Source: Candidatus Enterenecus merdae
GTDB lineage: Bacteria > Bacillota > Clostridia > Oscillospirales > Oscillospiraceae
Assembly: GCA_018716385.1 (NCBI GenBank)
Contig: DVJZ01000022.1
Span: 1-32,512, forward strand
Length of the DNA stretch: 32,512 nucleotides
Direction: 5' to 3'
Part shown: positions 2,868 through 21,478 of the stretch, piece after piece
Layout: every line of letters starts with the position of its first letter
Numbering within the stretch: the first letter of the stretch is position 1
The notes under the pieces: model-generated
Seen by the model: only the letters and a program-made list of their open reading frames with translations
What the model was told of the DNA's origin: nothing
The model's database searches: none
Translations under genes and position numbers: made by a program

Positions 2868-2883
2868 GGGGAGGAATGACAGC

Positions 2884-5800: not shown

Positions 5801-8800
5801 TGTACACCTACTATGACAACCAGCTGGGCACCAACCCCTATATCCGGGCCAGCCAGCGCACTGGCGACGGGTACAACGCCGTCTCCCAGAACAACCCCAT
5901 GGTGGAGATCGACCTGGGTCTGCTGCGCAACGCCAAGCTGCTGCGATTTACAGTTCGGAATGCGGCCACCGGCGAGCAGTACTTCCTAGAAGAGTCGGAG
6001 TACAACGCCAAGACCTATTACAGCGATACCTACGGCCAGGTGGTACCCTTCTACATCTACAACTCCACCCTGAGTGAGAACTACGTCTGGAACGGCCGGG
6101 ATCTGCGGGGCAACCTGGTTGCCAACGGGACGCGGGTCATCTATACGGTGGAGGCGTTCTTGGACGATGGGGACACGGTGGTGGACGACAGCTGGTCCTT
6201 CCAGGTGACCATGGACACCGAGGCTCCCCAGGTGCACAACGCCAGCAACCTGCAAAGCGCCCTGGACACCTCGGGCGGCCGGGCAGTCCTCACCCTGGAC
6301 CTGCAGGACAACACCAACATTGCGGCCATCCTGGTGGAGAACCAGAACGGAGACATCGTCGGCCGGTACGAACCGGGGACGGGGGTTACTGCTGGTTCCC
6401 GTTATAATCAGGAGATTGACATCACCGGCCTGGGCTCCGACTTCACCATCATTGTGGCGGACTATGCCTGCAACGAGACGGAGCTGGCAGTCCACCTGAC
6501 GGGCACGGAGGTGGAGAACCCCACCGTCCAGGAACTGGATACGGGCCGCCTGTATGGCAGCGAGAATATCACTGTGGCGGGTAGCGTGGACCTGGGCTGG
6601 TTCAGCGTGGATAAGACGAATCTGAGCGGCGCCCGCAATGAGACCTTCTCCACCGACACCTATTTCTCCGGCGAGTATGTGGACGGCTACGTTGTGGCCC
6701 AGCGCAGCAACGGCGACGTGGTGGTGCTCACCCCCTATGGCTCCTACTGGGGAGCCCAGACGATCATCCCTGCCGCTGCGGCTGCGGAAGGCCAGAGGGG
6801 CTTCCAGACCCTGTATGACATGGCCCTCCAGTACAATAGCTCCGGGCTGGACCGGCTGTTCGCCGTGGGCTGGACCTACAGCGGCACCATCACCGGCAAT
6901 GCCTACGGAGGGACGAACTGGCTGTATGAGATCGTGTTCCCTGCAGGAGGGACTCCTTACATCAAGGAGCTGCACGCGCTCACCGGCCTTTCCTCAGGGG
7001 AGGAAATGGTGTGCCTGACCATCTCGGATGAGGGAACCTTCTACGGCATCAGCACCAGCGGCACCTTGTGGAAGATTGACCCGAACTCCGGGGCCTGCAC
7101 CAGCATCCGCCTCATCACTGAATTTACCGGCCTGGCGGGCTACAGCGGGGTGAACGTCATCCAATCTATGGCCTATGACCATGAGGAGGACGTGATTTAC
7201 TGGGCGGCCCACAGCCAGACTTCCAACGGATACACCTACAGCCACCTATGCCAGATCGTGAAGCTCGACCCCAAGCAGGCCAACTGCCCCGGGCAGGTGA
7301 TCGGCAGCCTGGGCCACTCGGGCGCGTCTGCCCTGTTCGTGCCTACGGATCTGGAGTCCGACCTGTTCGGGCTGAGCAACCAACCCACAGGGTTCAGTGT
7401 CAGCCCCACGCAGGTCACCCTTCTGGCGGGCATGACCACCACCCTGAGCGTGAGCTGGTCGCCCTGGAATGCCGAGGCTCAGCCCATCACCTGGAGTTCC
7501 AACAACGAGAATGTGGCCAAGGTAGACAGCCGCGGTGTGGTGACCGCGGTGGCCCAGGGCACGGCCCAAATCCAGGCGACGGCCCAGGTGTATAACACGA
7601 CCACGAGCCAGATGGAAAACCGCACGGTGAGCGTCACGGTCAACGTGCAGTCGGCTCAGTCTAAGCTATACGGCTTTGTGGCCACCTCTGGCGGGGTGGA
7701 TGCGCGGAACTGGATCACCTACAGCGCGGCCAACCCCGGGAGCGCCACCACGATCGGGTCGGCCAGCCAGTACTGGCAGGGCGGGGCCTATTATGAGGGC
7801 AACGTCTACACCGTGGAGTATCCCAGGAACACCCAAGGGCTGTCCGGCTACACGGGCACCGTCGTGTACAAGAGTGCGGTGGGGGCAGATGGCAGCCTTG
7901 GCAACCCGGTAGAGATCAGCCGCACCCTGAACATCGAGGTCGGCAGCCTGGCCATTGACTACAACACTGGCCGGATGTACGGCGTGGACCTGACCAACGG
8001 CGGCCTTGTCATCGTAGATACCCAGACCGGCCTGATCGACCCCCTGGGCACGTTTAAGTTTGACGGCCGGGTGGACTCTTCGGAGTATGTCATGACCGCC
8101 ATGGCCATCATCTGCAAGGGGACGGAGACCACCATCCTGACGAGCAGCATGAACGGCAACCTGTACACTGTGGACCCGGATACGCTGGAGTGCACCAACA
8201 TTGGAAACGCCGGCGGGGCGGAGTACTGGGGCTATGGCTCCATGACTTATGACTACAACACTGGCAACATCTACTGGGCTCCGGCCAGCATGGGCGGCAG
8301 CAACCCTCTGCTGCTGGTGACGCTGGAGGGGAGCGGCTCCACCCTGCGGGCACAGGTCTCCGAGCTGGGCTATGTGTCCCGGTCCGGCGGCGTGCAGCAG
8401 ACCGTGTTGTTCACCATCCCAGAGAAAGAGCCGGAGACCATCATCATTCCTGTGGAAGATATGTGGATCGAGGGGGCGGAAGAGCGTACTGCCCTGACAG
8501 GGGCCACCCTCCAGCTGGTGGCACAGACCAAACCCACCCGGCCCACGGTACGGGCCAAGACCTGGACGTCCAGCAATGAAAGCATTGCCACTGTGGACAA
8601 CTTCGGCAACGTTACCTTCCATCAGATAGGCACGGTCACCATCACCGCCACCCTCAACGACCGGAATGGCAAGGTCTTTACCGACTCTGTGACCTACACC
8701 GTCCTGCCCGGCGGAGGGAAACTGACGGCTAACCTGGCCGCAGATACGGCCACCGGTTACTACGGCTTCCAGATCACCGTGCCGGTGTCCACCCCCCAGA

Positions 8801-10593
8801 AGTCTGAGCCTGGGCAGCGGGTGCTGGACTCCTACAACCTCCGGGCGGGCGAGTACTATGACGGGTTCTTCTACGCCTATGAGAACGACGGCACCTTCCT
8901 CCGGATATCCGCCAGCAACCCGCAGGACTTCGTTGTCCTAGGCCAGCTGACCGGAAACCAGGTGGTGGATATGACCTTCGACTACTCCACCGGCACCATG
9001 TACGCCCTGACGTCCAGCCAGCAGCTGATGAAAGTGAACCTGAGCACCGGACAGCTGACTCAGGTGGGCACGATCAGCCAGGCGCGCACCCTGGCCGCGG
9101 GGGAGAACGGCGCCCTGTATGCCATCTCTGCCGGTAGCAGTGGGACGTCGACCCTCAACAAGCTGACCGTTTCCGGCAACAGGATAACGTCCCAAAACAT
9201 CGGGACTGTGGCGGTTGCGGTGGGTTCCATCACATATAACAAGCAGACCTACCACTCCCAGATGACCTATGATTACGCCACAAACCGGCTCTACCTGCAT
9301 GCGGTGAACAGCGGAGGGAGCGGCGGCCTGTTCATGATCCAGCTGGATGAGAATGGGGATCGGACCACCCATGTGGCGGCCGAGCTGGGCAAGATCGCCC
9401 TGGAGATTACCGGCAGCTACACCGTGGGCGATGCCTATCTGGGTATGCTGTGCGCCATCCCCGATGAGAGCGATCTGCCGCAGCCCGACTATGTGACCAG
9501 CGTGACGCTGAATACCACCAACGTCCAGCTACAGGTGGATGACACCTTCACGCTGACGGCCCAGGTGCAACCCAGCAATACCAGCGCCCAGAGGGTGACC
9601 TGGAGATCTGACAACACTGGTGTCGCCAGCGTGGACAGCAATGGTAAGGTGACTGCGAAGAGCGCGGGCACGGCTACCATCACCGTCACCTCCACCCAGA
9701 ACTCCGATATCTCTGCAAGCTGCACCGTGCGGGTGCTGTCCGTCTCGGAGGCGGGGAACACCATGGCTTATGCCATCACGGAGGAAGGACTGATCTCCTT
9801 CAATCCCAAGGCCCCCAGTAGCTATAAGGTGGAGAGCAGTGGCATCCGCAATTCGGAAAACGTGGTGGGCATGGATGTGGCCGGTTCCACCGTGTACTAT
9901 GTGCGCAATGACGGCGGGAGTATCACGCTATACAGCTATGGACTGAGCACCCAGCTGGAGCGCAGCCTGGGCACGTTGAGCACCTATACCCTGTCCTTCA
10001 GCGACATGGCCTATGACGCGGAAGAGCAGATCGTCTACGTGGCCTGTGGCCTGTACGTCTACCAGTACTATCTGCCGAATCTGAGCGTGTCGGGGATCAA
10101 TTTGCCGTCCGGTGCCGTCCAGCCCACAGTGGCGGGGATGCCCTCCACCGGCAGCGTATACGGCGTGACCGTGGTGAACGGCAAGGCAGTGGCCCTGTGC
10201 GTCAGCGAGGGGAGGACCTTCCTGTACCAGATTGACAGCTTCAGCAGTGGGGAGTGTACCTTCCTGGGCTGGATTGGCGGGCTGAACCTCTCCCAGGGTA
10301 GCACTGAGTTCGCCTATGATGCGGCCGAGGATCGCTTCTATGTGACCGACGCGCGCAACGAGCTGTACACCTTTGCCATGGACGATCTCTATGACGGCTA
10401 CCTTGAGGTGGGGACGACACCCCCAATCCAGGACGCTGAGCTGATCGGTCCTGTGGGCGGTGGACTGAACGTCACTGGCTTTGCCATTGTGAACGATGCC
10501 TCCACGGCCCTGGAGGTATCCGCTGCCGCCGTCCCGGTGAGCCAGCCTGCCGCCCCCGTCCGGGAGCTGCGGCCCCAGACGCTGGCAGTGTGA
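2884..10593 (+). CDS. Giant secreted S8 subtilisin-like protease with internal dockerin
   Basis: A 2569-aa secreted serine endopeptidase of the lactocepin/C5a-peptidase type. The start is ATG 2884, after GGGGAGG at 2869; an in-frame TTG upstream would overlap the previous gene and spoil the signal peptide. Domains: signal peptide (1-27, ending APAALA), inhibitor-I9 propeptide (about 119-219), and an S8 catalytic domain with Asp259 (IIDTG), His335 (DHGTHVAG), oxyanion Asn430 and Ser661 (SGTSMASP). A PA-like insert lies about 493-600. A type I dockerin lies about 805-878, with two calcium loops, D812-N-G-D-G and D848-V-D-G-N-G. An FlgD/Fn3-like domain follows (about 1013-1116). Three Big2 domains (about 1503-1590, 1855-1940, 2200-2286) then alternate with four propeller-like stretches. 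There is no LPXTG or SLH, so surface attachment probably runs through the dockerin to the neighbouring cohesin protein. The natural substrate is unknown. Confidence 0.93.
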   Translation: MKGIQKRGLALLLALALTASLAPAALAVLAEGEPAQDTQAEQTQEHLSGFAFQDDDETAPGGLSLADPGEGSGTTAVDDGSDTITGTLTEGTGEVTEAALEPDEDRPAGSGADNEPAADDQVTFIVELEQPSLLAQGYSTDEIAGGTSSVRNYEARQEAAVEELKAQILEAVGDEADVEFGYTYTVASTGLSVTTTYENKEQIAQLPGVDRVYVAPMFHIPETDDQLYPQTSNATTMIGADTVNSTGYTGEGMRIAIIDTGLVLNHPSFQALSDDKLTEDSLTRDEVINVWRSLNASQGSSVYPGNVYVSTKVPYAYNYALNNTDVSHTGAGSDHGTHVAGIAAANRLNTTDVVGVAPDAQLLVMQVFTGNGANWDTVMAALEDCVALDVDVANLSLGSAAGYTDDDQNMIEILQRLTNAGVQVVIAAGNDTNSAYNNSFGGYSLAGNPDIGLVGTPSTYAAALSVASADNNAVTQLYFTVNGREIGYNDTGNGNELFSRYSGQTLSFVALSGYGDEDSYTGVNVSGKVVVVSRGGGVSFPDKQAIAQRHGAIACVVYNNTTGILNMQVNTGTGNIPCVSISQADGQFLAQLGSGSMAVSNQPAKEFQSNTAMSSFSSWGSAPNLQLKPEITGVGGNIYSTRDPAYMGSTTTYYGNMSGTSMASPQVAGAMAVLNQYLREQGYEKGMTTWQLAANLLMSTADPIWYSTELEYSPRQQGAGLVDLEGATGAGAYLSNPDAEYGRPKAEVGESASGTYRFTFTITNISNEDKTYRFDSSLFTETYNNGLIGNQPHALQATVQVATGDGAGLRYDFNGDGAITTADARMLLRSLSNASVIPSTDSHYTYRDVDGNGTVNEADVSVMVRYCAGLSVEVNLLATIGNASGATEVTVAAGETETFTATITLTASDRSYLNQFPNGMYVEGYLYAESADGNPVENLTMPILGFYGDWSAAPVFDGVNDLEGQTSLFEPVVYTYYDNQLGTNPYIRASQRTGDGYNAVSQNNPMVEIDLGLLRNAKLLRFTVRNAATGEQYFLEESEYNAKTYYSDTYGQVVPFYIYNSTLSENYVWNGRDLRGNLVANGTRVIYTVEAFLDDGDTVVDDSWSFQVTMDTEAPQVHNASNLQSALDTSGGRAVLTLDLQDNTNIAAILVENQNGDIVGRYEPGTGVTAGSRYNQEIDITGLGSDFTIIVADYACNETELAVHLTGTEVENPTVQELDTGRLYGSENITVAGSVDLGWFSVDKTNLSGARNETFSTDTYFSGEYVDGYVVAQRSNGDVVVLTPYGSYWGAQTIIPAAAAAEGQRGFQTLYDMALQYNSSGLDRLFAVGWTYSGTITGNAYGGTNWLYEIVFPAGGTPYIKELHALTGLSSGEEMVCLTISDEGTFYGISTSGTLWKIDPNSGACTSIRLITEFTGLAGYSGVNVIQSMAYDHEEDVIYWAAHSQTSNGYTYSHLCQIVKLDPKQANCPGQVIGSLGHSGASALFVPTDLESDLFGLSNQPTGFSVSPTQVTLLAGMTTTLSVSWSPWNAEAQPITWSSNNENVAKVDSRGVVTAVAQGTAQIQATAQVYNTTTSQMENRTVSVTVNVQSAQSKLYGFVATSGGVDARNWITYSAANPGSATTIGSASQYWQGGAYYEGNVYTVEYPRNTQGLSGYTGTVVYKSAVGADGSLGNPVEISRTLNIEVGSLAIDYNTGRMYGVDLTNGGLVIVDTQTGLIDPLGTFKFDGRVDSSEYVMTAMAIICKGTETTILTSSMNGNLYTVDPDTLECTNIGNAGGAEYWGYGSMTYDYNTGNIYWAPASMGGSNPLLLVTLEGSGSTLRAQVSELGYVSRSGGVQQTVLFTIPEKEPETIIIPVEDMWIEGAEERTALTGATLQLVAQTKPTRPTVRAKTWTSSNESIATVDNFGNVTFHQIGTVTITATLNDRNGKVFTDSVTYTVLPGGGKLTANLAADTATGYYGFQITVPVSTPQKSEPGQRVLDSYNLRAGEYYDGFFYAYENDGTFLRISASNPQDFVVLGQLTGNQVVDMTFDYSTGTMYALTSSQQLMKVNLSTGQLTQVGTISQARTLAAGENGALYAISAGSSGTSTLNKLTVSGNRITSQNIGTVAVAVGSITYNKQTYHSQMTYDYATNRLYLHAVNSGGSGGLFMIQLDENGDRTTHVAAELGKIALEITGSYTVGDAYLGMLCAIPDESDLPQPDYVTSVTLNTTNVQLQVDDTFTLTAQVQPSNTSAQRVTWRSDNTGVASVDSNGKVTAKSAGTATITVTSTQNSDISASCTVRVLSVSEAGNTMAYAITEEGLISFNPKAPSSYKVESSGIRNSENVVGMDVAGSTVYYVRNDGGSITLYSYGLSTQLERSLGTLSTYTLSFSDMAYDAEEQIVYVACGLYVYQYYLPNLSVSGINLPSGAVQPTVAGMPSTGSVYGVTVVNGKAVALCVSEGRTFLYQIDSFSSGECTFLGWIGGLNLSQGSTEFAYDAAEDRFYVTDARNELYTFAMDDLYDGYLEVGTTPPIQDAELIGPVGGGLNVTGFAIVNDASTALEVSAAAVPVSQPAAPVRELRPQTLAV

Positions 10594-11551: not shown

Positions 11552-11744
11552 TGGGCAAATGGCTCAAATCCCGCCGGTGGGGTCCCGCTGGATGGACAAA
11601 GGGCCCAACCGGGCCGGATGGGGGAGGGCGGAAAGCCCTGGGCAGGGCGGAAAATGAGGGAAAAAGGCTTCGTAATTTTACTCAAAAGCAGGCGGGTGAT
11701 TTTGTGGGATAGCGCCAAACTTGTTTGGAACCCAGCCGGAATAC

Positions 11745-11773
11745 TTGACAAAAAAAGTCCAGATTGCTATGCT
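11745..11773 (+). promoter_or_regulatory. Strong promoter of the Rrf2/fusion/flavodiiron operon
   Basis: A perfect TTGACA at 11745-11750 and TATGCT at 11768-11773 are 17 bases apart, giving a leader of about 25 bases before the GTG start. An Rrf2 protein would be expected to bind at or near this site if the operon is self-regulated. Confidence 0.8.
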
Positions 11774-11805
11774 CAAATCAAACAGCAAATCAGGAGGGCA
11801 CGGTA

Positions 11806-12210
11806 GTGGTAATCACCAGAGAGACGGACTATGCCCTCCGGATCCTGCGCGCGCTGACAGACGGGGAGCTGCACACTGTCAGGCAGATCGCGCAGGACGA
11901 ATTGCTGCCCCGGGCTTTTACCTATAAGATCTTGAAAAAGCTGGCGCAGGCAGGCTTGATCGAGGTGGTTCGGGGGACGGCAGGCGGCTGCCGACTGAGC
12001 GTGGAACTGGCCGACACCAGTTTGTATGACCTGATGATGGCAACCGGCGAGCGCAGCAACCTGACATCCTGCATGGATCCCCAGTTCCAGTGCCAATGGC
12101 GGGACTGCCACGGGGAGTGTGCGGTGCACCACAACCTGATGAAGATCCAGGAGAAGCTAGACCAGGAGCTTCGGATGCACAACCTAAAGGAGATTTTGGC
12201 CGGGCATTGA
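11806..12210 (+). CDS. Rrf2-family transcriptional regulator, probable Fe-S sensor
   Basis: A 134-aa DNA-binding regulator of the IscR/NsrR/CymR group. A winged helix begins MVITRETDYALRILRAL; residues 24-60 (HTVRQIAQ to VVRGTAGG) cover the recognition helix and wing. A cysteine cluster at Cys89, 96, 101 and 105 (C-X6-C-X4-C-X3-C), plus Cys62 in the wing, could carry an iron-sulphur cluster, as in family members that sense Fe-S status, NO or redox. The start is GTG 11806, with AGGAGG eight bases before it; the upstream ATG in frame has no ribosome site. It is the first gene of an operon with the dehydrogenase fusion and flavodiiron protein, so sensing of O2, NO or Fe-S damage is a reasonable inference. 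The ligand is not shown. Confidence 0.88.
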   Translation: MVITRETDYALRILRALTDGELHTVRQIAQDELLPRAFTYKILKKLAQAGLIEVVRGTAGGCRLSVELADTSLYDLMMATGERSNLTSCMDPQFQCQWRDCHGECAVHHNLMKIQEKLDQELRMHNLKEILAGH

Positions 12211-12273
12211 CCCAGTCCGTTTTTATAGGATCAAACTGGACAAAAATCATCAACATTAGAAGGAGGTACCACC

Positions 12274-14184
12274 ATGCAATTCCAAACCACACCGGCCCAG
12301 GAAGAAATAAGGGCCAAGGTCCGGGCATTCGTGGAGGAGGAGGTCAAACCCATCGCCTTCCAGCTGGACCAGAACAACGAGTTCCCCGACGACGCGGTGC
12401 GTAAGATGGGGGAGCTTGGCCTGATGGGCATTCCCTTCCCCAAGGAGTACGGCGGCGCTGGACTGGACGCGCTGAGCTATGCCATCGCGGTGGAGGAGCT
12501 CTCCCGGGTGGACGGCGGCGTCGGGGTTATCCTGTCGGCCCACGTGTCCCTGGGCTCCTGGCCCATCTTTGCCTACGGCACCGAGGCGCAGAAGAAGAAA
12601 TACCTGACCCCGCTGGCCCGGGGCGAGAAGATCGGCGCCTTCGGCCTGACCGAGCCCAATGCCGGCTCTGACGCGGGCGGCACGGAGACGACTGCCGTGC
12701 TCAAGGGCGACCATTACATCCTCAACGGCGGCAAGATCTTCATCACCAACGCCCCCAAGGCGGACACCTATGTGGTGTTTGCGGTGACCACGCCGGACAT
12801 CGGCACCCGGGGCATCAGCGCGTTCATCGTGGAGAAGGGCTGGAAGGGCTTCTACTTCGGCGACCACTATGACAAGCTGGGCATCCGTTCCTCTTCCACC
12901 GCCGAGCTGATCTTCGACAACGTGGAGGTGCCCAAGGAGAACCTGCTGGGCAAGGAGGGCGAGGGCTTCAAGATCGCCATGGCCACCCTGGACGGCGGCC
13001 GGATCGGCATCGCCTCCCAGGCCCTGGGTATCGCCCAGGGGGCCTATGAGAACGCCCTGGAGTACGCCAAGGAGCGCATTCAGTTCGGCAAGCCCATCGG
13101 CTTCCAGCAGAACACCTCCTTCAAGCTGGCGGACATGGCCACCAAGCTGCGCTGCGCCCGCTTCCTGATCTACTCCGCCGCCGAGCTCAAGGAGGCCCAC
13201 GCCCCCTACGGCATGGAGTCGGCCATGGCCAAGATGTACGCCTCCGACATCGCCCTGGAGGTGACCAACGACGCGCTGCAGATCTTCGGTGGCGCCGGCT
13301 ACATGAAGGGTATGGAGGTGGAGCGCGCCTACCGGGACGCCAAGATCACCACCATTTACGAGGGGACCAACGAGATCCAGCGGGTGGTCATCGCCTCCCA
13401 CATCCTGGGCAAGCCCCCCAAGAGCGAGAGCGGCTCTTCCAGCCGGCCCAAGAAGCCGGCCCCCATCACCGGTGTGCGCAAGAAGATGATCCTGCGCGAC
13501 GGTGGCCCCGCCGAGCAGGTGGCTGCGCTGGTGGAGCACCTGAAGAAGGATGGGCACGACTTCACCGTGGGCATCCCCATGGACACCCCCATCGCTCAGG
13601 CCGAGCGGGTGGTTTCCGCCGGTAAGGGCATCGGGGATCAAAAGAACATGAAGCTGGTGGAGAACCTGGCCCGGGCGGCCGGCGCCGCGGTGGGTTCCTC
13701 CCGCCCCGTGGCCGAGACCCTCAAGTATGTGCCCCTGAACCGCTATGTGGGTATGTCCGGCCAGAAGTTCACCGGCAACCTGTACATCGCTTGCGGCGTC
13801 TCCGGCGCGGTGCAGCACCTGAAGGGCATCAAGGATGCGTCCACCATCGTGGCCATCAACAAGAACCCGGGCGCGGCCATTTTCAAGAACTGCGACTACG
13901 GCATCGTGGGGGATGTGGAGGAGATCCTGCCCCTGCTGACCAAGGCGCTGGACACTGGCGAGAAGCAGCCCGCGCCTCCCATGGTGAAGATGAAGCGCCC
14001 CCGTCCGCCCAAGGAGGAGCCCATCGGCCCCCGGTACGTCTGCAGCGGCTGCGGCTACGAGTATGTGCCCGAGCTGGGCGATCCGGATGCGGAGATCGCA
14101 CCGGGCACCCTGTTCTCCAAGCTGCCTGAGGACTGGGTGTGCCCCGAGTGCGCAGAGGATAAGACCCAGTTTATTGAGGCGTAA
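12274..14184 (+). CDS. Fusion: acyl-CoA dehydrogenase, EtfA FAD domain, rubredoxin
   Basis: A 636-aa three-part redox protein. Residues 1 to about 385 are a full acyl-CoA dehydrogenase, with catalytic Glu363 in YEGTNEIQR as in short- and medium-chain enzymes and [14 protein letters not shown] in the FAD region. Residues about 402-560 match the FAD-binding C-terminal domain of EtfA ([43 protein letters not shown]). EtfA domain I is largely missing and no EtfB is encoded nearby. Residues about 586-636 are rubredoxin, with Cys590, 593, 623 and 626 (CSGCG, CPEC). The layout predicts electron flow from acyl-CoA through two flavins to iron within one polypeptide. AAGGAGGT precedes ATG by six bases. 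The next gene encodes a flavodiiron protein, whose usual donor is rubredoxin. Direction of flow and acyl chain length are inferred, not shown; reductive use toward butyryl-CoA is an alternative. Confidence 0.93.
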
Positions 14185-14217
14185 CAGCCGAAAAAGATTG
14201 AAAAGGAGGACTGAACC

Positions 14218-15438
14218 ATGCATTGCGTGAGAACTGTGACTGACAATCTCTACTGGGTCGGCGCCAATGACCACCGGCTGGCCCTGTTTGAAAACGTCCA
14301 CCCCATTCCCAAGGGGGTGAGCTACAACTCCTACCTGCTGATGGACAAGAAGTCCGTGCTGTTCGACACGGTGGACTGGTCGGCCTGCCGCCAGCTGCTG
14401 GAGAACGTGGAGTACCTGGTGGGCAGCAAGGGGCTGGACTACCTGGTCATCAACCACATGGAGCCTGACCACGGGGCCTCCATCGAGGAGATCCTGCTGC
14501 GCTGGCCCAAGGTGAAGATCATCTCCACGGAAAAGGCCTTCATGTTCATGCGCCAGTTCGGCTTCCACGTGGACGGCCACGAGTGCATCGAGGTCAAGGA
14601 GGGCGACACCTACAACTTCGGGGACCACACCGTCACCTTCGTGGGCGCCCCCATGGTCCACTGGCCCGAGGCCATGGTCACCTTTGACACCACCAACGGC
14701 GTGCTCTTCTCCGCCGACGCATTCGGCACCTTTATCGCCCTGGACGGTAAGCTGTTTGCCGATGAGGTGGACTTTGACCGGGACTGGATCGATGAGGCCC
14801 GCCGCTACCTGACCAACATCGTGGGCAAGTATGGCCCCCATATCCAGTTGCTGCTGAAGAAGGCCGGCGGCATCCTGGACAAGATCAAATACATCTGCCC
14901 CCTCCATGGGCCCGTCTGGCGCAAGGACCTGGGCTACTTCATTGACAAGTATGACAAGTGGAGCCGTTATGAGCCCGAGGTGAAGGGTGTGCTCATCGCC
15001 TACGCCTCCATGTATGGCAACACCGAGGCTGCCGCCCAGGCCCTGGCCGCCAAGCTGTGCGAGAAGGGCGTGACCAACGTGGCGGTGTACGACGTGTCCA
15101 ACACCCACGTGTCCTACCTCATCTCCGAGACCTTCAAGTACAGCCACATCGTGCTGGCCTCTGTGACCTATAACCTGGGTATCTACCCGGTGATGAAGAA
15201 CTATCTGGAGGATATGAAGGCCCTAAACCTTCAAAACCGCACCTTCGCCATCGTGGAGAACGGCTCCTGGGCCTGCAAGTCGGGTGACCTGATGGAGAAG
15301 TTCATCAACGAGGAAATGAAGAACATGACGGTGCTCAACGAGCGCCTGTCCCTGGCCTCCGCCCTCCACGCGGACAAGGCCATCGAGCTGGACGTGTTGG
15401 CGAACGCCATCGTGGAGTCGATCAACGAGCAGGCGTAA
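14218..15438 (+). CDS. fprA: Flavodiiron protein (O2/NO reductase, FprA type)
   Basis: A 406-aa cytoplasmic A-type flavodiiron protein that reduces O2 to water and/or NO to N2O. The beta-lactamase-like domain has every diiron ligand: His80, Glu82, Asp84 (HMEPDH, 80-85), His148, Asp167 and His230. The flavodoxin domain starts near 255, with the FMN loop SMYGNT at 264-269. The length matches minimal family members without a fused rubredoxin, and here rubredoxin is supplied by the preceding gene 33 bases upstream. AGGAGG precedes ATG. The relative preference for O2 or NO cannot be read from sequence. No NADH:rubredoxin reductase is present in the window. Confidence 0.95.
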   Translation: MHCVRTVTDNLYWVGANDHRLALFENVHPIPKGVSYNSYLLMDKKSVLFDTVDWSACRQLLENVEYLVGSKGLDYLVINHMEPDHGASIEEILLRWPKVKIISTEKAFMFMRQFGFHVDGHECIEVKEGDTYNFGDHTVTFVGAPMVHWPEAMVTFDTTNGVLFSADAFGTFIALDGKLFADEVDFDRDWIDEARRYLTNIVGKYGPHIQLLLKKAGGILDKIKYICPLHGPVWRKDLGYFIDKYDKWSRYEPEVKGVLIAYASMYGNTEAAAQALAAKLCEKGVTNVAVYDVSNTHVSYLISETFKYSHIVLASVTYNLGIYPVMKNYLEDMKALNLQNRTFAIVENGSWACKSGDLMEKFINEEMKNMTVLNERLSLASALHADKAIELDVLANAIVESINEQA

Positions 15439-15488
15439 GCCCGGCAAACTTTCATCCGATTCAGACCGCGCCATCCCGGCGCGTCAAG

Positions 15489-15533
15489 GCACCGGACGGA
15501 AGGGTTGGAAACCCTTCCGTCCGGTGCTTTTTT
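15489..15533 (+). terminator. Terminator of the flavodiiron operon
   Basis: A 17-bp stem (15489-15505 with 15511-15527), a five-base loop and a TTTTTT tract lie 50 bases after the flavodiiron stop codon. It separates this operon from the fructose operon. Confidence 0.93.
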
Positions 15534-15684
15534 GACGTTTTGGCTCCTTGGCGGATACATATCCAGGGCCGTCCCGGCGCATACTGAACTGACTGGAATT
15601 GAAGCCATCCATAGAACATGGAACAATTGCACAAAAGAGAGTGGGAAAATTTATCCAAACTGATTGATTGAAAATGATTAATTA

Positions 15685-15750: not shown

Positions 15751-15769
15751 GGAAGAGGGGGTGGACGAG

Positions 15770-16528
15770 ATGCTGGCGGAGGAGAGGATGGCGGCGGTGC
15801 TGGCGGTGGTGGAGCGGCAGGGGTCGGCCAGCGTGGCCCAGCTGTGCCAGGCCACCGGAGCCTCGGAGGCCACCATCCGGCGGGACCTGGCCCAGCTTCA
15901 CCAGCAGGGGCGGCTGAACAAGGTGCACGGCGGGGCGATGGCCCTGGGGGGCAACTTCTCCAGCGAAGAGCCCGACCTGACCACCAAGGCCCAGCTTCAT
16001 GTGGGGGAGAAGGATGCCATCGGGCGCTATGCGGCCACCCTGGTTCACGACGACGACTTCGTCTTTCTGGATGCGGGGACAACGGTGCTGGCCATGGCCA
16101 ACTACCTGGGCGCGTCCCAGGCCAGCTTCGTCACCACCAGCATCGCCTGCGCCAAGCGCCTGAGCGAGTTGGAACGCCGGGTGACGGTGGTAGGCGGCCA
16201 GCTCAAGCTGGGTACGCAGGCCATCATTGGGGCGGAGGCGCTGGCCTTTCTGGAGCGCTACCACTTCACCAAGGCCTTCTTAGGGGCCAACGGCATCGCG
16301 GTGCAAGAGGGGTGCACCACCCCCGACCCGGAGGAGGCGGCAGTCAAACGCAAGGCGGCCGACCAGGCATATATGGCCTATGTGCTGGCCGACGCCAGCA
16401 AGTTTGGCCAGGTGGCGGCGGTGTCCATCCGGCCGCTGGAAAAAACCTGCGTGATCACTGAGCGCCTGCCCGACGCGCGGTTTCGAGGCAAGGGAATCAT
16501 CAAGGAAGTGTGGGGGGAGCGGACATGA
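15770..16528 (+). CDS. fruR: DeoR-family repressor of the fructose operon
   Basis: A 252-aa sugar-phosphate-responsive regulator. The N-terminal DeoR helix-turn-helix spans about residues 21-56 (VAQLCQATGASEATIRRDL, then the KVHGGA wing), and the C-terminal sensor domain contains FLDAGTTVLAMA. ATG 15770 is preferred because family members begin ML-x-EER and a G-rich site lies about eight bases before it; GTG 15761 would add three residues. The stop overlaps the fruK start (ATGA). Fructose 1-phosphate is the usual inducer of FruR homologues, and the operon context supports this. The operator is the palindrome around the upstream promoter. Confidence 0.92.
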   Translation: MLAEERMAAVLAVVERQGSASVAQLCQATGASEATIRRDLAQLHQQGRLNKVHGGAMALGGNFSSEEPDLTTKAQLHVGEKDAIGRYAATLVHDDDFVFLDAGTTVLAMANYLGASQASFVTTSIACAKRLSELERRVTVVGGQLKLGTQAIIGAEALAFLERYHFTKAFLGANGIAVQEGCTTPDPEEAAVKRKAADQAYMAYVLADASKFGQVAAVSIRPLEKTCVITERLPDARFRGKGIIKEVWGERT

Positions 16529-17427
16529 TCTATACCGTCACCTTCAATCCCGCCATTGACTATGTGGTGTGGCTGGATCGGCTGGAGCCGGGGACCATCA
16601 ACCGGGTCCAGCAGGAACTGATCCAGTTTGGGGGCAAGGGGATCAATGTCTCCGTGGTGCTGGGCCGCCTGGGGGTGGAGAACCGGGCGCTGGGCTTTCT
16701 GGCCGGCTTCACCGGGCAGGCGGTGGAGCGGGGGCTGGCCGCGGAGGGGGTGCAGACCGACTTCATCCACTTGCCGGAGGGAGTCACTCGCATCAATGTG
16801 AAGGTCAAGGGCCGGGAGGAAACTGAACTCAACGGCCGGGGGCCGGACATCGGAGAGGCGGCGCTGGCGGAGCTGCTGGGCAAGCTGGATGAGCTGACCG
16901 ACGCGGATATCCTGGTGCTGGCCGGCTCCATCCCGGCTTCCCTCCCCGGGGATGTCTACGAGCAGATCCTCGCCCGCCTGGAGGGCCGGAATGTGCGGGT
17001 GGTGGTGGACGCGGAGGGGGAGCTGCTTTGCAGCGCTCTGGCCTACCGCCCCTTCCTCATCAAGCCCAACAGCCTGGAGCTGGGGGGAATCTTTGGCAAA
17101 ACGCTGCACACCCCAGAGGAGATCCGGACGTGTGCTGCGGCCTTGCAGGAGCGTGGCGCTCGGAACGTGCTGGTGTCCATGGCGGGGGACGGGGCCATTC
17201 TGCTGGATGAGCAGGGGGGATTCCACCAGCTGGCCGCCCCCAAGGGGACGGTGCGCAACTCCGTGGGCGCCGGGGACTCCATGGTGGCGGGCTTTCTGGC
17301 CGGCTGGCTGCGCACCGGCTCCTATGCCCAGGCCCTGCGGATGGGGACGGCCACAGGCAGCGCCACCGCCTTCTCAGACGGCCTGGCCACCCGGGAGCGG
17401 GTGGAGCAGTTGCTGGCGGAGCTTTGA
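16525..17427 (+). CDS. fruK: 1-phosphofructokinase
   Basis: A 300-aa PfkB/ribokinase-family enzyme that phosphorylates fructose 1-phosphate to fructose 1,6-bisphosphate with ATP. Family signatures are GGKGINVS (36-43) and NSVGAGDSMVAGF, with catalytic Asp251. The start MIYTVTFNPAIDY is typical of FruK and LacC. It overlaps the fruR stop by four bases, with GGGGGGAGC as ribosome site. Placement between fruR and fruA supports 1-phosphofructokinase rather than tagatose-6-phosphate kinase. Confidence 0.94.
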   Translation: MIYTVTFNPAIDYVVWLDRLEPGTINRVQQELIQFGGKGINVSVVLGRLGVENRALGFLAGFTGQAVERGLAAEGVQTDFIHLPEGVTRINVKVKGREETELNGRGPDIGEAALAELLGKLDELTDADILVLAGSIPASLPGDVYEQILARLEGRNVRVVVDAEGELLCSALAYRPFLIKPNSLELGGIFGKTLHTPEEIRTCAAALQERGARNVLVSMAGDGAILLDEQGGFHQLAAPKGTVRNSVGAGDSMVAGFLAGWLRTGSYAQALRMGTATGSATAFSDGLATRERVEQLLAEL

Positions 17428-17496
17428 GAGATGGCAGACCGGGACGCCCCGGCGGGGGCTCCGGTATTCCAAAAACAGACGGAAAGGATGAAGACG

Positions 17497-19422
17497 ATGC
17501 GTATCACAGACCTTTTGCGGGCAGAGGGCATTCAGCTGCGCTCCGCCGTTGTTGACCAAAAGCAGGCCATCGATCTGCTGGTGGGATTGCAAGAGCAGTC
17601 GGGTAACCTGACCGACCGGGAGGGGTACAAGAAGGACATCCTGGCCCGGGAGGCCCAGGGCAGCACCGCCATCGGCAACGGCATCGCCGTACCCCACGCC
17701 AAGAGCGGGGCGGTGCGCCGGCCAGGGCTGGCGGCCATCACCGTACCGGGCGGGGTGGATTACAACGCCCCCGACGGCCAGCCCGCCAAGCTCCTATTCA
17801 TGATCGCTGCCCCAAAGGACGGGGGGGACGCCCACCTGGAGATCCTCTCCCGGATGATGGTGATGCTCATGGACGAGGGATTTTGCAAGTCGCTGTTGGA
17901 GGCTCAGAACGCCCAGGATTTCCTGGCCTGCATCGACCGGCAGGAGCGGGAGAAGTACCCGGAGGACGGCCAGCCTGCCGCGCCTGAGCCCCAGCAGACG
18001 CAGGCCAATGGTTACCGCATCCTGGCGGTGACGGCCTGCCCCACCGGCATCGCCCATACCTATATGGCGGCCGAGGCCCTGGAGCAGAAGGGACGGGAGC
18101 TGGGCATCCCCGTCAAGGCGGAGACCCAGGGCTCCGGAGGGGCGAAGAACGTGCTGACCCGGGCGGAGATCGCCGGGGCGCAGGCCATCATCATCGCCGC
18201 GGACAAGGAGGTGGACCTGGCCCGGTTTGAGGGAAAGCCCGTGCTGCGGGTGCCGGTGTCCGACGGGATCCACCGCCCGGAGGAGCTGATCCGCTCCGCC
18301 CCTGATGCCCCGGTCTATCACCATACCGGGCAGGCGCCGGAGCAGGAGGAGGGGGAGAGCGTTGGCCGGCGCATCTACAAGCAGCTGATGAACGGCGTCA
18401 GCCATATGCTGCCCTTCGTCATCGGCGGCGGCATCCTCATCGCCCTGGCCTTCCTGCTGGACGACGCGTCCATCAACTACGCCAACTTCGGCACCAACAC
18501 CCCCGTGGCCGCCTGGTTCCGGAACATCGGCAACGCAGCCTTCAACGTGATGCTGCCCATCCTGGCCGGCTATATCGCCATGGCCATCGCCGACCGCCCG
18601 GGTCTGATGGTGGGCTTTGTGGGTGGCGCGCTGGCGGTGTCCGGCGCCACCTTCGCCGCCCCGGCAGGGGACTCGGGGTCAGTGTCCGGCTTCCTGGGCG
18701 CGCTCATCGCGGGCTTTGTAGCCGGTTACCTGATGCTGGGCCTGCGGGCGCTGTGCGACAAGCTGCCCCGGGCGCTGGAGGGGATCAAGCCGGTGCTGAT
18801 CTACCCGGTGGTGGGACTGCTGCTCATCGGGGTGTTCATGTGCGTGATCAATCCCTTCGTGGGGATGCTCAACAGCGCGCTGTACTCCGGCCTGTCCGCC
18901 ATGGGCAGCGGCAGCAAGGTGCTGCTGGGCTTTGTGGTGGCGGCCATGATGGCCATCGACATGGGCGGGCCGTTCAATAAGGCAGCCTATCTGTTTGGCA
19001 CCTCCACCCTGGCGACGGCGGACATCGCTGCGGGAGGTTCGGACGTGATGGCGGCGGTGATGATCGGCGGCATGGTGCCTCCCATCGCCATCGCCCTGGC
19101 CACCACCTTCTTCCGGAACCGTTTTACCCAGGAGGAGCGCAAGTCCGGCCCGGTCAACTACGTCATGGGCCTGTGCTTCATCACCGAAGGGGCCATCCCC
19201 TTCGCCGCGGCGGACCCCTGGCGGGTGATCCTGTCCTGCGCCCTGGGCTCCGGCGTGGCCGGCGCACTGTCCATGCTCTTTGGGTGCGCCTCTCCCGCCC
19301 CCCATGGCGGCCTGTTCGTCTTCCCGGTGATGCACAATGTGCTGGGCTATCTGGCTGCCCTGGTCATCGGCTCGGTGGTGGGGATGATTCTGCTGGCGGC
19401 GCTGAAAAAGCGCAAGAGCTGA
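17497..19422 (+). CDS. fruA: Fructose PTS enzyme IIABC
   Basis: A 641-aa membrane permease and phosphotransferase that imports fructose as fructose 1-phosphate. The order is A-B-C. The IIA domain has phospho-site His67 (GIAVPHAKSG). The IIB domain has Cys181 (TACPTGIAHTYMAAEAL). The hydrophobic IIC domain runs from about residue 300 to the end, with FVIGGGILIALAFLL and several glycine-rich helices. ATG 17497 is chosen because GGAAAGG precedes it by nine bases and IIA domains commonly start MRITDLL; ATG 17488 and 17431 are in frame but poorly placed. Phosphate arrives from HPr, encoded next. Confidence 0.95.
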   Translation: MRITDLLRAEGIQLRSAVVDQKQAIDLLVGLQEQSGNLTDREGYKKDILAREAQGSTAIGNGIAVPHAKSGAVRRPGLAAITVPGGVDYNAPDGQPAKLLFMIAAPKDGGDAHLEILSRMMVMLMDEGFCKSLLEAQNAQDFLACIDRQEREKYPEDGQPAAPEPQQTQANGYRILAVTACPTGIAHTYMAAEALEQKGRELGIPVKAETQGSGGAKNVLTRAEIAGAQAIIIAADKEVDLARFEGKPVLRVPVSDGIHRPEELIRSAPDAPVYHHTGQAPEQEEGESVGRRIYKQLMNGVSHMLPFVIGGGILIALAFLLDDASINYANFGTNTPVAAWFRNIGNAAFNVMLPILAGYIAMAIADRPGLMVGFVGGALAVSGATFAAPAGDSGSVSGFLGALIAGFVAGYLMLGLRALCDKLPRALEGIKPVLIYPVVGLLLIGVFMCVINPFVGMLNSALYSGLSAMGSGSKVLLGFVVAAMMAIDMGGPFNKAAYLFGTSTLATADIAAGGSDVMAAVMIGGMVPPIAIALATTFFRNRFTQEERKSGPVNYVMGLCFITEGAIPFAAADPWRVILSCALGSGVAGALSMLFGCASPAPHGGLFVFPVMHNVLGYLAALVIGSVVGMILLAALKKRKS

Positions 19423-19470
19423 GCGCCCCACCGGGCAGATTAAGACTGACTGCGAAAGGAAGCGTTGGAA

Positions 19471-19734
19471 ATGGTAAGCGCAAAGACCAAGATCGTCAAC
19501 CCCATGGGGATGCATATGCGCCCCGCCCAGCTCTTTGTGAAGGCGGTGACCCCCTTTCCCTGCCATGTGACCCTGGTGTGCAACGGCAAGGAGATCAACG
19601 GCAAGAGCATCATGAACCTGATGGCCGCCTGCATCAAGCAGGGGATGGAGCTGGAGATCCGCTGCGACGGCGAGGGGGAGGCCGAGTGCCTCCAGGCCGC
19701 GGTGGAGCTGGTGGACGCAGGGCTGGGCGAGTGA
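19471..19734 (+). CDS. ptsH: Phosphocarrier protein HPr
   Basis: An 87-aa cytoplasmic PTS carrier. His15 (GMHMRPA) takes phosphate from enzyme I and passes it to IIA. Ser46 (NGKSIMNL) is the regulatory site that HPr kinase phosphorylates in Firmicutes for catabolite control. The length matches the family. AAAGGA lies ten bases before ATG 19471; an in-frame TTG six bases earlier is less likely. Because ptsH sits within the fructose operon it could be a fructose-induced copy rather than the only HPr of the cell. Confidence 0.95.
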   Translation: MVSAKTKIVNPMGMHMRPAQLFVKAVTPFPCHVTLVCNGKEINGKSIMNLMAACIKQGMELEIRCDGEGEAECLQAAVELVDAGLGE

Positions 19735-19768
19735 GGCGGCGGACGCCGGGAAAGGACGGAACGGGAGC

Positions 19769-21478
19769 ATGAAGCTGCACGGGATCGGCGCCTCCCACGG
19801 CATCGGGATCGGGACCGTGGTGCGGGTGCGCACGGGGGAGTTGGATTACAGCGCGGTGCCCTACGCCGGGGCGTCCCGGGAGAAGGAGCGCCTGCGCCAG
19901 GCCATGGAGACCTTTGCCGCCCGCACCCAGGCTATGGCCGACCGGGTCAGGGCCCAGGTGGGGGAGAAGGAGGGGGAGATCCTCAGCGGACAGATCACCA
20001 TGCTGGAGGACCCCTATCTGGTGGAGCAGATGGAGCAGGCCGTGGACGAGGGGAAGTGCGCGGAGGCCGCCCTGGACATGGTGTGCCAGAGCTTCATGGA
20101 GCTGTTTGCCGGCGCTGAGGATGAGCTGATGCGCCAGCGGGCGGCCGACGTGGGGGACATCCGGGCCCGGATGCTGGCCATCCTGCTGGGGGTGGAGGGG
20201 ACGGATCTATCCGACCTGCCCCCGGGCACCGTGCTGGCCGCCCATGACCTGACCCCCTCCATGACCGTGGGGCTGGACCGGGAGCACGTGGCGGGCATCC
20301 TCACCGAGACGGGGGGCAGCACCAGCCACTCGGCCATCCTGGCCCGGGCGCTGGAGGTGCCGGCGGTGCTCAGCGTACCCGACGCGCTGGAGCTGGCCCA
20401 GGACGGGATGACCGCCGTGGTGGACGGCGGGGAGGGGGTGGCCGTACTCTCCCCAGAGCCGGACCAGCTGGCCGACTACCAGGCCCGGCGGGATCAATGG
20501 CTGGCCCAACGGGAGCAGCTGCAGGCCTATCGGGACCAGCCCACCCGCACCGCCGACGGCCGTCAGGTAGCCCTGTACGCCAACATCGGCGGGGTGGCCG
20601 ACGCCAAGGCAGCCCTGGAGGCCGGGGCGGAGGGCATCGGGCTGTTTCGCACGGAGTTTCTGTTCATGGACCGGGCCGCCCTGCCCGGGGAGGAGGAGCA
20701 GTACGAGGCCTACCGCCAGGTGGCCCAGCTGATGGCGGGCAGGGAGGTCATCATCCGCACCCTGGACGTGGGCGGGGACAAGGACATCGCCTACCTGGGC
20801 ATGGAGCGGGAGGAGAACCCCTTCTTGGGCCACCGGGCCATTCGCTACTGCCTGGACAACCCGGAGACGTTCAAGGTCCAGCTCCGGGCCTTGCTGCGGG
20901 CGGGGGCGGAGGGGGGCAATGTGAAGATCATGCTGCCCCTGGTCACCGGGGTGGAGGAAGTGCGGCGGGCCCGGGCGCTGCTGGAGCAGTGCAAGCAGGA
21001 GCTGGCCGGACAGGGGCTGGCCTATGACCAAGACATCTCCCTGGGGGTGATGATCGAGACCCCCGCCGCCGCCCTCACCGCCGACCTGCTGGCCCGGGAG
21101 GTGGATTTCTTCTCCATCGGCACCAACGATTTGACCCAGTACACCATGGCGGTGGACCGGGGCAACGCCCGGGTGGCCGGGCTGTACACGGTGTTCCACC
21201 CGGCGGTGCTGCGGGCCATCCGGCAGGTGATCGCCGCGGGCAAGGCCGCAGGCATCCCGGTGGGGATGTGCGGGGAGGCGGCGGCCGACCCCGCCCTGAT
21301 CCCGTTGCTGCTGGCCTTTGGGCTGGATGAGTTCAGCGTCAGCCCCGCCTCGGTGCTGACCGCCCGCCGGCACATCGCCCAGTGGGAGCAGGAGCAGGCT
21401 GACCGGCTGGCTCAGCAGGTGATGGAGCTGCCCACCGCCGCCCAAGTGGAGGAGCGGCTGAAAGGGCAGAGCCGGTGA
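19769..21478 (+). CDS. ptsI: PTS enzyme I (PEP-protein phosphotransferase)
   Basis: A 569-aa cytoplasmic enzyme that takes phosphate from phosphoenolpyruvate and hands it to HPr. The phosphorylated residue is His187 in TGGSTSHSAI. The PEP-binding TIM-barrel half contains GLFRTEFLFMDR, IRTLDVGGDKD, FSIGTNDLTQY and Cys501 in GMCGEAAADP. The length fits the family. It follows ptsH by 34 bases and is the last gene of the operon, so the cluster encodes every PTS component from PEP to fructose. Confidence 0.96.
   Translation: MKLHGIGASHGIGIGTVVRVRTGELDYSAVPYAGASREKERLRQAMETFAARTQAMADRVRAQVGEKEGEILSGQITMLEDPYLVEQMEQAVDEGKCAEAALDMVCQSFMELFAGAEDELMRQRAADVGDIRARMLAILLGVEGTDLSDLPPGTVLAAHDLTPSMTVGLDREHVAGILTETGGSTSHSAILARALEVPAVLSVPDALELAQDGMTAVVDGGEGVAVLSPEPDQLADYQARRDQWLAQREQLQAYRDQPTRTADGRQVALYANIGGVADAKAALEAGAEGIGLFRTEFLFMDRAALPGEEEQYEAYRQVAQLMAGREVIIRTLDVGGDKDIAYLGMEREENPFLGHRAIRYCLDNPETFKVQLRALLRAGAEGGNVKIMLPLVTGVEEVRRARALLEQCKQELAGQGLAYDQDISLGVMIETPAAALTADLLAREVDFFSIGTNDLTQYTMAVDRGNARVAGLYTVFHPAVLRAIRQVIAAGKAAGIPVGMCGEAAADPALIPLLLAFGLDEFSVSPASVLTARRHIAQWEQEQADRLAQQVMELPTAAQVEERLKGQSR

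What the first reader, a model, noticed from the sequence alone, without database searches (positions are those of the whole stretch)
11745..15533. Rrf2 / acyl-CoA dehydrogenase-EtfA-rubredoxin fusion / flavodiiron operon: possible acyl-CoA-driven O2 or NO reduction
One polypeptide joins an acyl-CoA dehydrogenase, only the FAD domain of EtfA, and a rubredoxin with all four cysteines. The next gene is a complete flavodiiron protein, which normally takes electrons from rubredoxin. EtfB and NADH:rubredoxin reductase are absent here. The simplest reading is a direct route from acyl-CoA to O2 or NO, controlled by a cysteine-rich Rrf2 sensor. Seen: domains and catalytic residues. Known: rubredoxin feeds flavodiiron proteins. 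Inferred: the direction and the physiological role.
Basis: partly seen in the sequence, partly recalled or inferred. Interest (0 to 1): 0.8.

Follow-up and report, generated by a model that had tools for sequence, protein, structure and literature searches.

The report
Butyryl-CoA-driven oxygen-removal operon
Three genes of a gut anaerobe form an oxygen-removing system that probably spends a fermentation intermediate, butyryl-CoA, to turn oxygen into water; the same pair of enzymes was described in Fusobacterium in 2024, so this is another example of it, with a likely DNA control site added here.

Summary
Observation confirmed: a short operon of an Rrf2 repressor, one 636-residue protein (acyl-CoA dehydrogenase + EtfA FAD domain + rubredoxin) and a complete flavodiiron protein, closed by a strong hairpin. 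The reading is essentially right but not new. This is butyryl-CoA oxygen oxidoreductase (BOOR), shown biochemically in Fusobacterium nucleatum (Bystrom & Wolthers 2024, seen only through papers citing it): butyryl-CoA is oxidised to crotonyl-CoA, O2 goes to water, no NO activity. A July 2026 preprint already links an NsrR-like Rrf2 gene to BOOR in gut Clostridia. Added here: a dyad over the rrf2 promoter (right half present in 37 of 40 promoters, 0.9 expected) and a similar, less symmetric site before the fusion gene. Of distinct operons without adjacent Rrf2, 10 of 44 carry a Fur-box-like site instead. Binding, signal and activity are inferred.

The parts
11744..11762 (+). Predicted Rrf2 operator 1, CTTGACAAAAAAAGTCCAG, lying over the -35 box and spacer of the rrf2 promoter
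   Evidence: Test that does not use the right half for selection: of 40 distinct rrf2 promoters anchored on -35 and -10, 37 have TCNA at the dyad position, 0.9 expected. 33 of 41 within 4 mismatches of the 19-mer consensus against 0.3 in dinucleotide shuffles, consensus drawn from the same data. Only site with fewer than 2 mismatches in this genome to a 17-mer whose centre was written to admit it
11745..11773 (+). Sigma-70-type promoter TTGACA - 17 - TATGCT
   Evidence: 10 of 12 positions; 2 found in the stretch against 1.0 expected, weak alone; same layout seen by eye in the loci
11806..12210 (+). Rrf2-family repressor, NsrR-like residues D8, C89, C96, C105
   Evidence: Pfam Rrf2 E 8.6e-24; D8 in 40 of 41, the three Cys in 41 of 41
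12236..12254 (+). Possible operator 2, CTGGACAAAAATCATCAAC, between rrf2 and the fusion gene
   Evidence: 24 of 41 gaps have a site within 4 mismatches of the 19-mer against 0.2 expected, 23 of 40 distinct; hit at 12237-12253 with 2 mismatches. An unbiased dyad search of the gaps shows little excess (7 of 39 with 7 or more pairs, 4.1 expected)
12274..14184 (+). BCR-type fusion: acyl-CoA dehydrogenase - EtfA FAD domain - rubredoxin, 636 aa
12274..13407 (+). Acyl-CoA dehydrogenase domain (residues 1-378), Bcd-like; Q249, Y362, E363 kept
   Evidence: best solved relatives 5ol2_C and 4l1f_A
13576..13950 (+). EtfA domain II (FAD domain, residues about 435-559) without domain I
14032..14172 (+). Rubredoxin domain, Cys 590/593/623/626
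14218..15438 (+). Two-domain flavodiiron protein (diiron + flavodoxin), 406 aa
15486..15533 (+). Intrinsic terminator: 21-nt arms, 3-nt loop, T-run
   Evidence: (z -7.5 for 15440-15540); the consensus scan did not flag it

Best explanation
The fusion and the flavodiiron protein form a butyryl-CoA:O2 oxidoreductase (BOOR). The dehydrogenase domain oxidises butyryl-CoA (possibly other short acyl-CoAs) to the enoyl-CoA; its FAD passes electrons to the FAD of the tethered EtfA domain II, which takes the place of the mobile domain of a full ETF so that no EtfB is needed; this reduces the rubredoxin, which feeds the FMN and diiron site of the flavodiiron protein, where O2 becomes water. The crotonyl-CoA made can be re-reduced by the genome's separate bifurcating-type Bcd-EtfAB, whose low-potential product can drive Rnf, so O2 is removed without direct NAD(P)H use. 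A dedicated Fe-S Rrf2 protein represses the operon, and its own gene, through the dyad over the promoter and perhaps a second site; O2 or NO damage to the cluster would release it. Shown here: domains, residues, conserved gene order, operator conservation, presence of Bcd-EtfAB and Rnf genes. Shown by others for a homologue (known to me second-hand): activity and complex. Inferred: substrate and acceptor in this species, the order of electron steps, operator binding, signal.
For: Domains and residues. Gene pair kept in 14 of 14 other complete fusions found in 150 genomes of the family, 19 of 19 others found in 291 genomes of the class and 78 of 80 named loci, the other two ending 90 and 5 bases after the fusion gene. 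EtfB beside 0 of 80. The two related frames that stop before rubredoxin (L020, L022) have no flavodiiron match in the stretch read. Biochemistry of F. nucleatum BOOR: PMC12288474 section 8, passages of PMC12630350. Own Bcd/EtfB/EtfA and Rnf; EtfB nearest to chains of 6fah, 5ol2 and 4kpu, which are bifurcating from recall. Operator.
Against: No activity, expression or binding was tested. The F. nucleatum BCR/FDP sequences were not obtained, so identity to the characterised pair was not measured. The AlphaFold model was weak (mean pLDDT 73, pTM 0.56) and was not used for distances. Pocket residues do not separate butyryl-CoA from other short acyl-CoAs. The operator consensus was written after looking at the same sequences and its left half coincides with the -35 box; the second site shows little symmetry in an unbiased search.
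Confidence: 0.9

Rival explanations
1. The same enzyme pair serves mainly as an acyl-CoA-driven NO reductase, with the NsrR-like Rrf2 sensing NO.
For: Rrf2 has NsrR-type residues D8 + 3 Cys; the nearest NCBIfam models and solved relatives of the flavodiiron protein are named NO reductases.
Against: F. nucleatum BOOR had no NO reductase activity; family names of flavodiiron proteins are a poor guide to O2/NO preference (recalled); the score is far under the NCBIfam cut-off (216 against 635 bits).
Confidence: 0.06
2. The fusion runs in reverse: reduced rubredoxin drives enoyl-CoA (crotonyl-CoA) reduction, and the flavodiiron neighbour is only co-regulated.
For: The dehydrogenase domain is Bcd-like and matches acryloyl-CoA reductase best in NCBIfam, although below its cut-off (491 against 640 bits).
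Against: No rubredoxin reductase was recognised among the 22 window frames scanned; the flavodiiron gene stays with the fusion; the genome already has Bcd-EtfAB for this step. The fusion keeps Q249 and Y362, which by eye match the Gln/Tyr pair missing in a F. nucleatum Bcd that butyryl-CoA does not reduce (passage); the genome's own Bcd seems to keep them too (by eye), so this is weak.
Confidence: 0.03
3. The fusion needs the genome's separate EtfB (or EtfAB) to work, as an ordinary ETF-linked dehydrogenase, with rubredoxin as a side outlet.
For: EtfB and EtfA are encoded elsewhere in the genome.
Against: EtfA domain I, which packs against EtfB (recalled), is missing; EtfB is beside 0 of 80 homologues; F. 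nucleatum BCR + FDP were enough in vitro according to the review.
Confidence: 0.03

Closest known systems
Butyryl-CoA oxygen oxidoreductase (BOOR), F. nucleatum FN1424-FN1423 (Bystrom & Wolthers 2024; seen second-hand)
   Same: Same domain order in the fusion (Bcd - C-terminal part of EtfA - rubredoxin), same adjacent flavodiiron gene; this genome also has Bcd-ETF and Rnf genes as in the published energy scheme.
   Different: Different phylum; here preceded by rrf2 with a conserved dyad (control of the F. nucleatum pair was not examined here). Sequence identity not measured.
Rrf2 C0FN14 - BOOR neighbourhood in Roseburia inulinivorans, Eisenbergiella, Faecalibacterium (preprint PMC13404960, July 2026)
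   Same: Rrf2 with D8 and three Cys beside the BOOR pair in gut Clostridia, proposed as its repressor.
   Different: The main text gives no hit for operator, binding site, palindrom, promoter or motif, and the parts read do not mention a Fur-box-like alternative in operons without Rrf2.
NAD(P)H-driven flavodiiron systems (C. difficile multidomain protein; Trichomonas fusion; Moorella Hrb and flavodiiron protein)
   Same: Flavodiiron O2/NO reduction fed through rubredoxin.
   Different: Electrons come from NAD(P)H, not from an acyl-CoA (titles and abstract starts; passages).

Membership tests
BOOR | One protein with Bcd, EtfA FAD domain and rubredoxin in this order | tested here: met
BOOR | Adjacent two-domain flavodiiron gene with complete diiron ligands | tested here: met
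BOOR | Catalytic Glu of the dehydrogenase, FAD-tuning R/S/H of EtfA, four rubredoxin Cys | tested here: met
   E363, R477, S495, H515, C590/593/623/626 invariant in 15 of 15; role of R/S/H from a passage of PMC12630350, matched to this protein by eye; role of the Glu recalled
BOOR | Butyryl-CoA-dependent reduction of O2 to water, no NO reduction | not testable with these tools
   needs purified proteins
BOOR | Alpha4-beta4 complex of the two proteins | not testable with these tools
   only single chains can be modelled here
BOOR | Sequence relationship to F. nucleatum FN1424/FN1423 | not tested
   those sequences were not obtained; class-wide homologues down to 63% identity keep the pair
NsrR-like Rrf2 regulators | Rrf2 domain, D8 and three Cys as cluster ligands | tested here: met
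   spacing C-x6-C-x8-C, which differs from the C-x5-C-x5-C recalled for NsrR
NsrR-like Rrf2 regulators | NCBIfam NsrR equivalog cut-off | tested here: not met
   36.9 against 182 bits, so not filed as NsrR
NsrR-like Rrf2 regulators | Cluster binding and NO or O2 sensing | not testable with these tools
   needs spectroscopy

The most novel reading that the evidence does not exclude
BOOR in gut Clostridia is governed by interchangeable control systems. In one, a dedicated, autoregulated Fe-S Rrf2 repressor reads its own dyad (CTTGAYAAAWTTTATCMAG) over its promoter; in another, the rrf2 gene is gone and the promoter carries a Fur-box-like site (ATAATGATTCTYATTAT), nearly unique in the four genomes searched, read by an unlinked regulator. 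The oxygen-removal enzyme would thus be fixed while its sensor is swapped, so different butyrate producers would divert butyryl-CoA to O2 in answer to different signals (cluster damage versus metal or peroxide).
Probability: 0.5. Interest if true: 0.5.

Novelty: already known. Interest (0 to 1): 0.35.

Why it matters
The operon ties the main product pathway of gut butyrate producers to oxygen removal: each turn takes butyryl-CoA that could have become butyrate. The fusion occurs in 20 of 291 class genomes and 15 of 150 family genomes, this one included. The enzyme is known; the conserved promoter sites found here give a direct, testable handle on when commensals switch it on.

Tried and rejected
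NO reductase reading: kept as a rival at 0.06, because the characterised homologue has no NO activity.

Dependence on EtfB: looked for beside 80 homologues, found at none.

Rrf2 regulon: a 17-mer pattern in five genomes. In this genome 11 of 12 strand hits have 2 mismatches, operator 2 among them, so no wider regulon can be claimed (reversed-pattern control: 1). The operon's site is the best or joint best hit in all five, but G146 has seven further places with 1 mismatch that I did not follow.

PerR box: no excess in operons without Rrf2 (6 against 5.3 at 3 or fewer mismatches). Fur 7-1-7 box: in excess there (12 against 2.6) but also in rrf2 promoters (11 against 0.4) and gaps (9 against 0.3), probably because it resembles the Rrf2 dyad, so only the 19-mer Fur box was used to discriminate.

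Dyad symmetry (0.67 and 0.65 against 0.17-0.32 at slid axes) was measured on sites chosen with a palindromic consensus, so it is partly built in; one search was run as a fairer test and supports the promoter site, hardly the gap site.

Structure: one AlphaFold job, pTM 0.56, not used for distances. No fold search was run.

Solved structures: of 203 matches the best 60 were shown; none of those covers the fusion past residue 400. No match for Rrf2 at 0.001.
Full report
WHAT IS THERE. The window is contig C5 of a 1.80-Mb, 99% complete genome. A promoter (TTGACA-17-TATGCT, 11745-11773) is followed by an Rrf2 gene (GTG 11806-12210), a 636-codon gene (12274-14184), a 406-codon gene (14218-15438) and a hairpin with 21-nt arms plus a T-run (15486-15533). 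The middle gene has acyl-CoA dehydrogenase domains (residues 6-377), the FAD domain of EtfA (about 435-559) without EtfA domain I, and a rubredoxin (587-633); the third is a flavodiiron protein with diiron and flavodoxin domains. Gaps of 63 and 33 bases and the terminator suggest one transcript. Upstream on the other strand lies a short-chain dehydrogenase; downstream a DeoR regulator, 1-phosphofructokinase and PTS genes.

RESIDUES. In 15 complete fusions (this one and 14 that are 68-88% identical to it), E363 with Y362 and Q249, EtfA R477, S495 and H515, and rubredoxin C590, C593, C623, C626 are invariant. In 105 near full-length, stop-free flavodiiron sequences from the fetched loci (this genome counted twice, a few others too) H80, E82, D84, H148, D167, H230 are invariant; that these are the metal ligands is recalled. 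Rrf2: D8 in 40 of 41, C89, C96 and C105 in 41 of 41.

GENE ORDER. Family sample: 15 of 150 genomes, this one included, hold the complete fusion; two more hold pieces at contig ends, and two hold frames that stop before rubredoxin. The other 14 complete ones have the flavodiiron gene directly downstream. Class sample: 20 of 291 genomes, this one included, hold the fusion (350 bits or more; the next match, EtfA-like without the rest, has 132 bits), and the 19 others have the flavodiiron gene next. The sets overlap (three genomes occur in two sets) and relatives are not independent. No EtfB (own EtfB as query, E up to 1e-5) and no EtfA domain I was found in the 80 loci, 1.02 Mb in all, although the flanks of some are short. 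Closest named record: L036, an uncultured Oscillospiraceae bacterium, 97-99% identical in the three proteins.

WHAT IT IS. A literature search showed that this is butyryl-CoA oxygen oxidoreductase, BOOR. I read section 8 of the review PMC12288474 whole, passages of PMC12630350, and section 13 plus passages of the preprint PMC13404960. The primary paper (Bystrom & Wolthers 2024, Biochemistry 63:2352) is not held, so what it found is second-hand: the F. [quoted passage not shown] The preprint reports an NsrR-like Rrf2 gene beside BOOR in gut Clostridia and proposes it as the repressor. Both halves of the finding are therefore in print.

HOW IT LIKELY WORKS. Butyryl-CoA reduces the dehydrogenase FAD; the tethered EtfA FAD domain collects the electrons (in an ordinary ETF this mobile domain swings between partners; recalled) and hands them to rubredoxin, then to the FMN and diiron centre, where O2 becomes water. 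This genome also has Bcd, EtfB and EtfA in a row, with a crotonase-like gene nearby (the crotonase read by eye), EtfB being nearest to 6fah, 5ol2 and 4kpu (bifurcating from recall), and two Rnf-Nqr family genes with other Rnf-like genes beside them (the others by eye). So the loop proposed in the review, in which crotonyl-CoA from BOOR feeds bifurcation and Rnf, is possible here; that it runs is inferred.

Of 97 loci considered I kept 88 with the fusion start intact and dropped nine whose fusion match is cut or split. In 41, rrf2 lies within 400 bases upstream on the same strand; in 47 it does not, L082 because its contig begins too close to tell, L018 because rrf2 is divergent. Sites within 4 mismatches of CTTGAYAAAWTTTATCMAG: 33 of 41 rrf2 promoters (0.3 expected from dinucleotide shuffles), 24 of 41 rrf2-fusion gaps (0.2), 3 of 47 operons without adjacent rrf2 (0.4); with duplicate stretches removed 33 of 40, 23 of 40 and 3 of 44. 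The consensus came from these same data. A test that does not use the right half for selection: 40 of 40 distinct promoters could be anchored on -35 and -10, and 37 have TCNA where the dyad requires it, 0.9 expected from shuffling the rest of the same stretches. An unbiased dyad search finds 9 of 40 promoters with 8 or more of 9 pairs (0.8 expected) but only 1 of 39 gaps (0.3 expected), so the gap site is conserved in sequence yet weakly symmetric. L018 has a perfect 9-1-9 palindrome upstream of the fusion. In this genome operator 1 is the only site with fewer than 2 mismatches to a 17-mer whose centre I wrote to admit it; 12 strand hits in all, 1 in the reversed control. In the four other genomes searched the operon's site is best or joint best, but G146 has seven further 1-mismatch places.

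Operons without adjacent rrf2: 11 of 47 have a site within 4 mismatches of the 19-bp Fur box (0.1 expected), against 0 of 41 in either region of rrf2-type operons; distinct stretches 10 of 44 against 0 of 40. In four such genomes ATAATGATTCTYATTAT, a pattern drawn from these promoters, occurs five times with up to 2 mismatches, four of them at the BOOR promoter, 0 in the reversed control. In seven genomes without adjacent rrf2 no match to this Rrf2 exceeds 30% identity, while two others have 64% and 52% at the operon (two of the seven are only 80-85% complete). Against: 36 of 47 have no such box at this threshold, so other or no control exists there; no Fur-family gene was recognised nearby, by eye only, and Fur itself is not established. 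The preprint's main text has no hit for operator, binding site, palindrom, promoter or motif. A search for Rrf2, flavodiiron, Clostrid, operator and Fur box (31 papers with three or more terms, 20 listed) showed no other paper on this in titles and abstract starts. Supplements and the 2024 paper were not seen, so a published operator cannot be excluded.

VARIANTS. L022 (L176) in G033 is a frame of about 565 residues, 47% identical, dehydrogenase + EtfA domain without rubredoxin and without a flavodiiron match in the 4.65 kb read; ABC-transporter-like genes follow (the latter by eye). L020 (L177) in G047 stops before rubredoxin, has a transposase-like frame next to it and lies at a contig end, so it may be a decayed copy (by eye).

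VERDICT. Real and intact-looking; an instance of a system published in 2024, with a regulator link published as a preprint in 2026. Interest 0.35, mainly for the operator and the apparent exchange of control.

Noticed in passing
L176:7979-9673 (G033) and L020: Dehydrogenase-EtfA frames that end without rubredoxin and have no flavodiiron match in the stretch read; the G033 copy (47% identical) may be a separate architecture with another electron acceptor.
   Followed up: partly
window 2830-10593: A 2587-aa frame with S8 subtilase, PA, fn3-like, dockerin and bacterial Ig-like domains, probably a very large secreted protease.
   Followed up: no
window 15761-21478: DeoR regulator, 1-phosphofructokinase, a PTS IIA-IIB-IIC protein and PTS enzyme I, probably fructose uptake, next to BOOR.
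   Followed up: no
upstream of the fusion in L005, L007, L008, L052, L053, L055, L068 and others: Fur-box-like dyad in BOOR promoters that lack rrf2.
   Followed up: partly
L101: Record labelled Faecalibacterium prausnitzii ATCC 27768 whose BOOR region resembles that of Clostridium fessum (L095), with a second flavodiiron gene about 4-5 kb downstream in both; the label may be wrong.
   Followed up: no
L095, L100, L101, L102: A second, more distant flavodiiron match (41-57% identical) near the BOOR operon.
   Followed up: no
L090 and L099: The fusion match is split into two pieces (in L090 the flavodiiron match too), possibly sequencing error or decay.
   Followed up: no
Rrf2 residue C62 (window): A further Cys in the GGC motif, kept in 36 of 41 Rrf2 proteins, outside the usual cluster ligands.
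   Followed up: no
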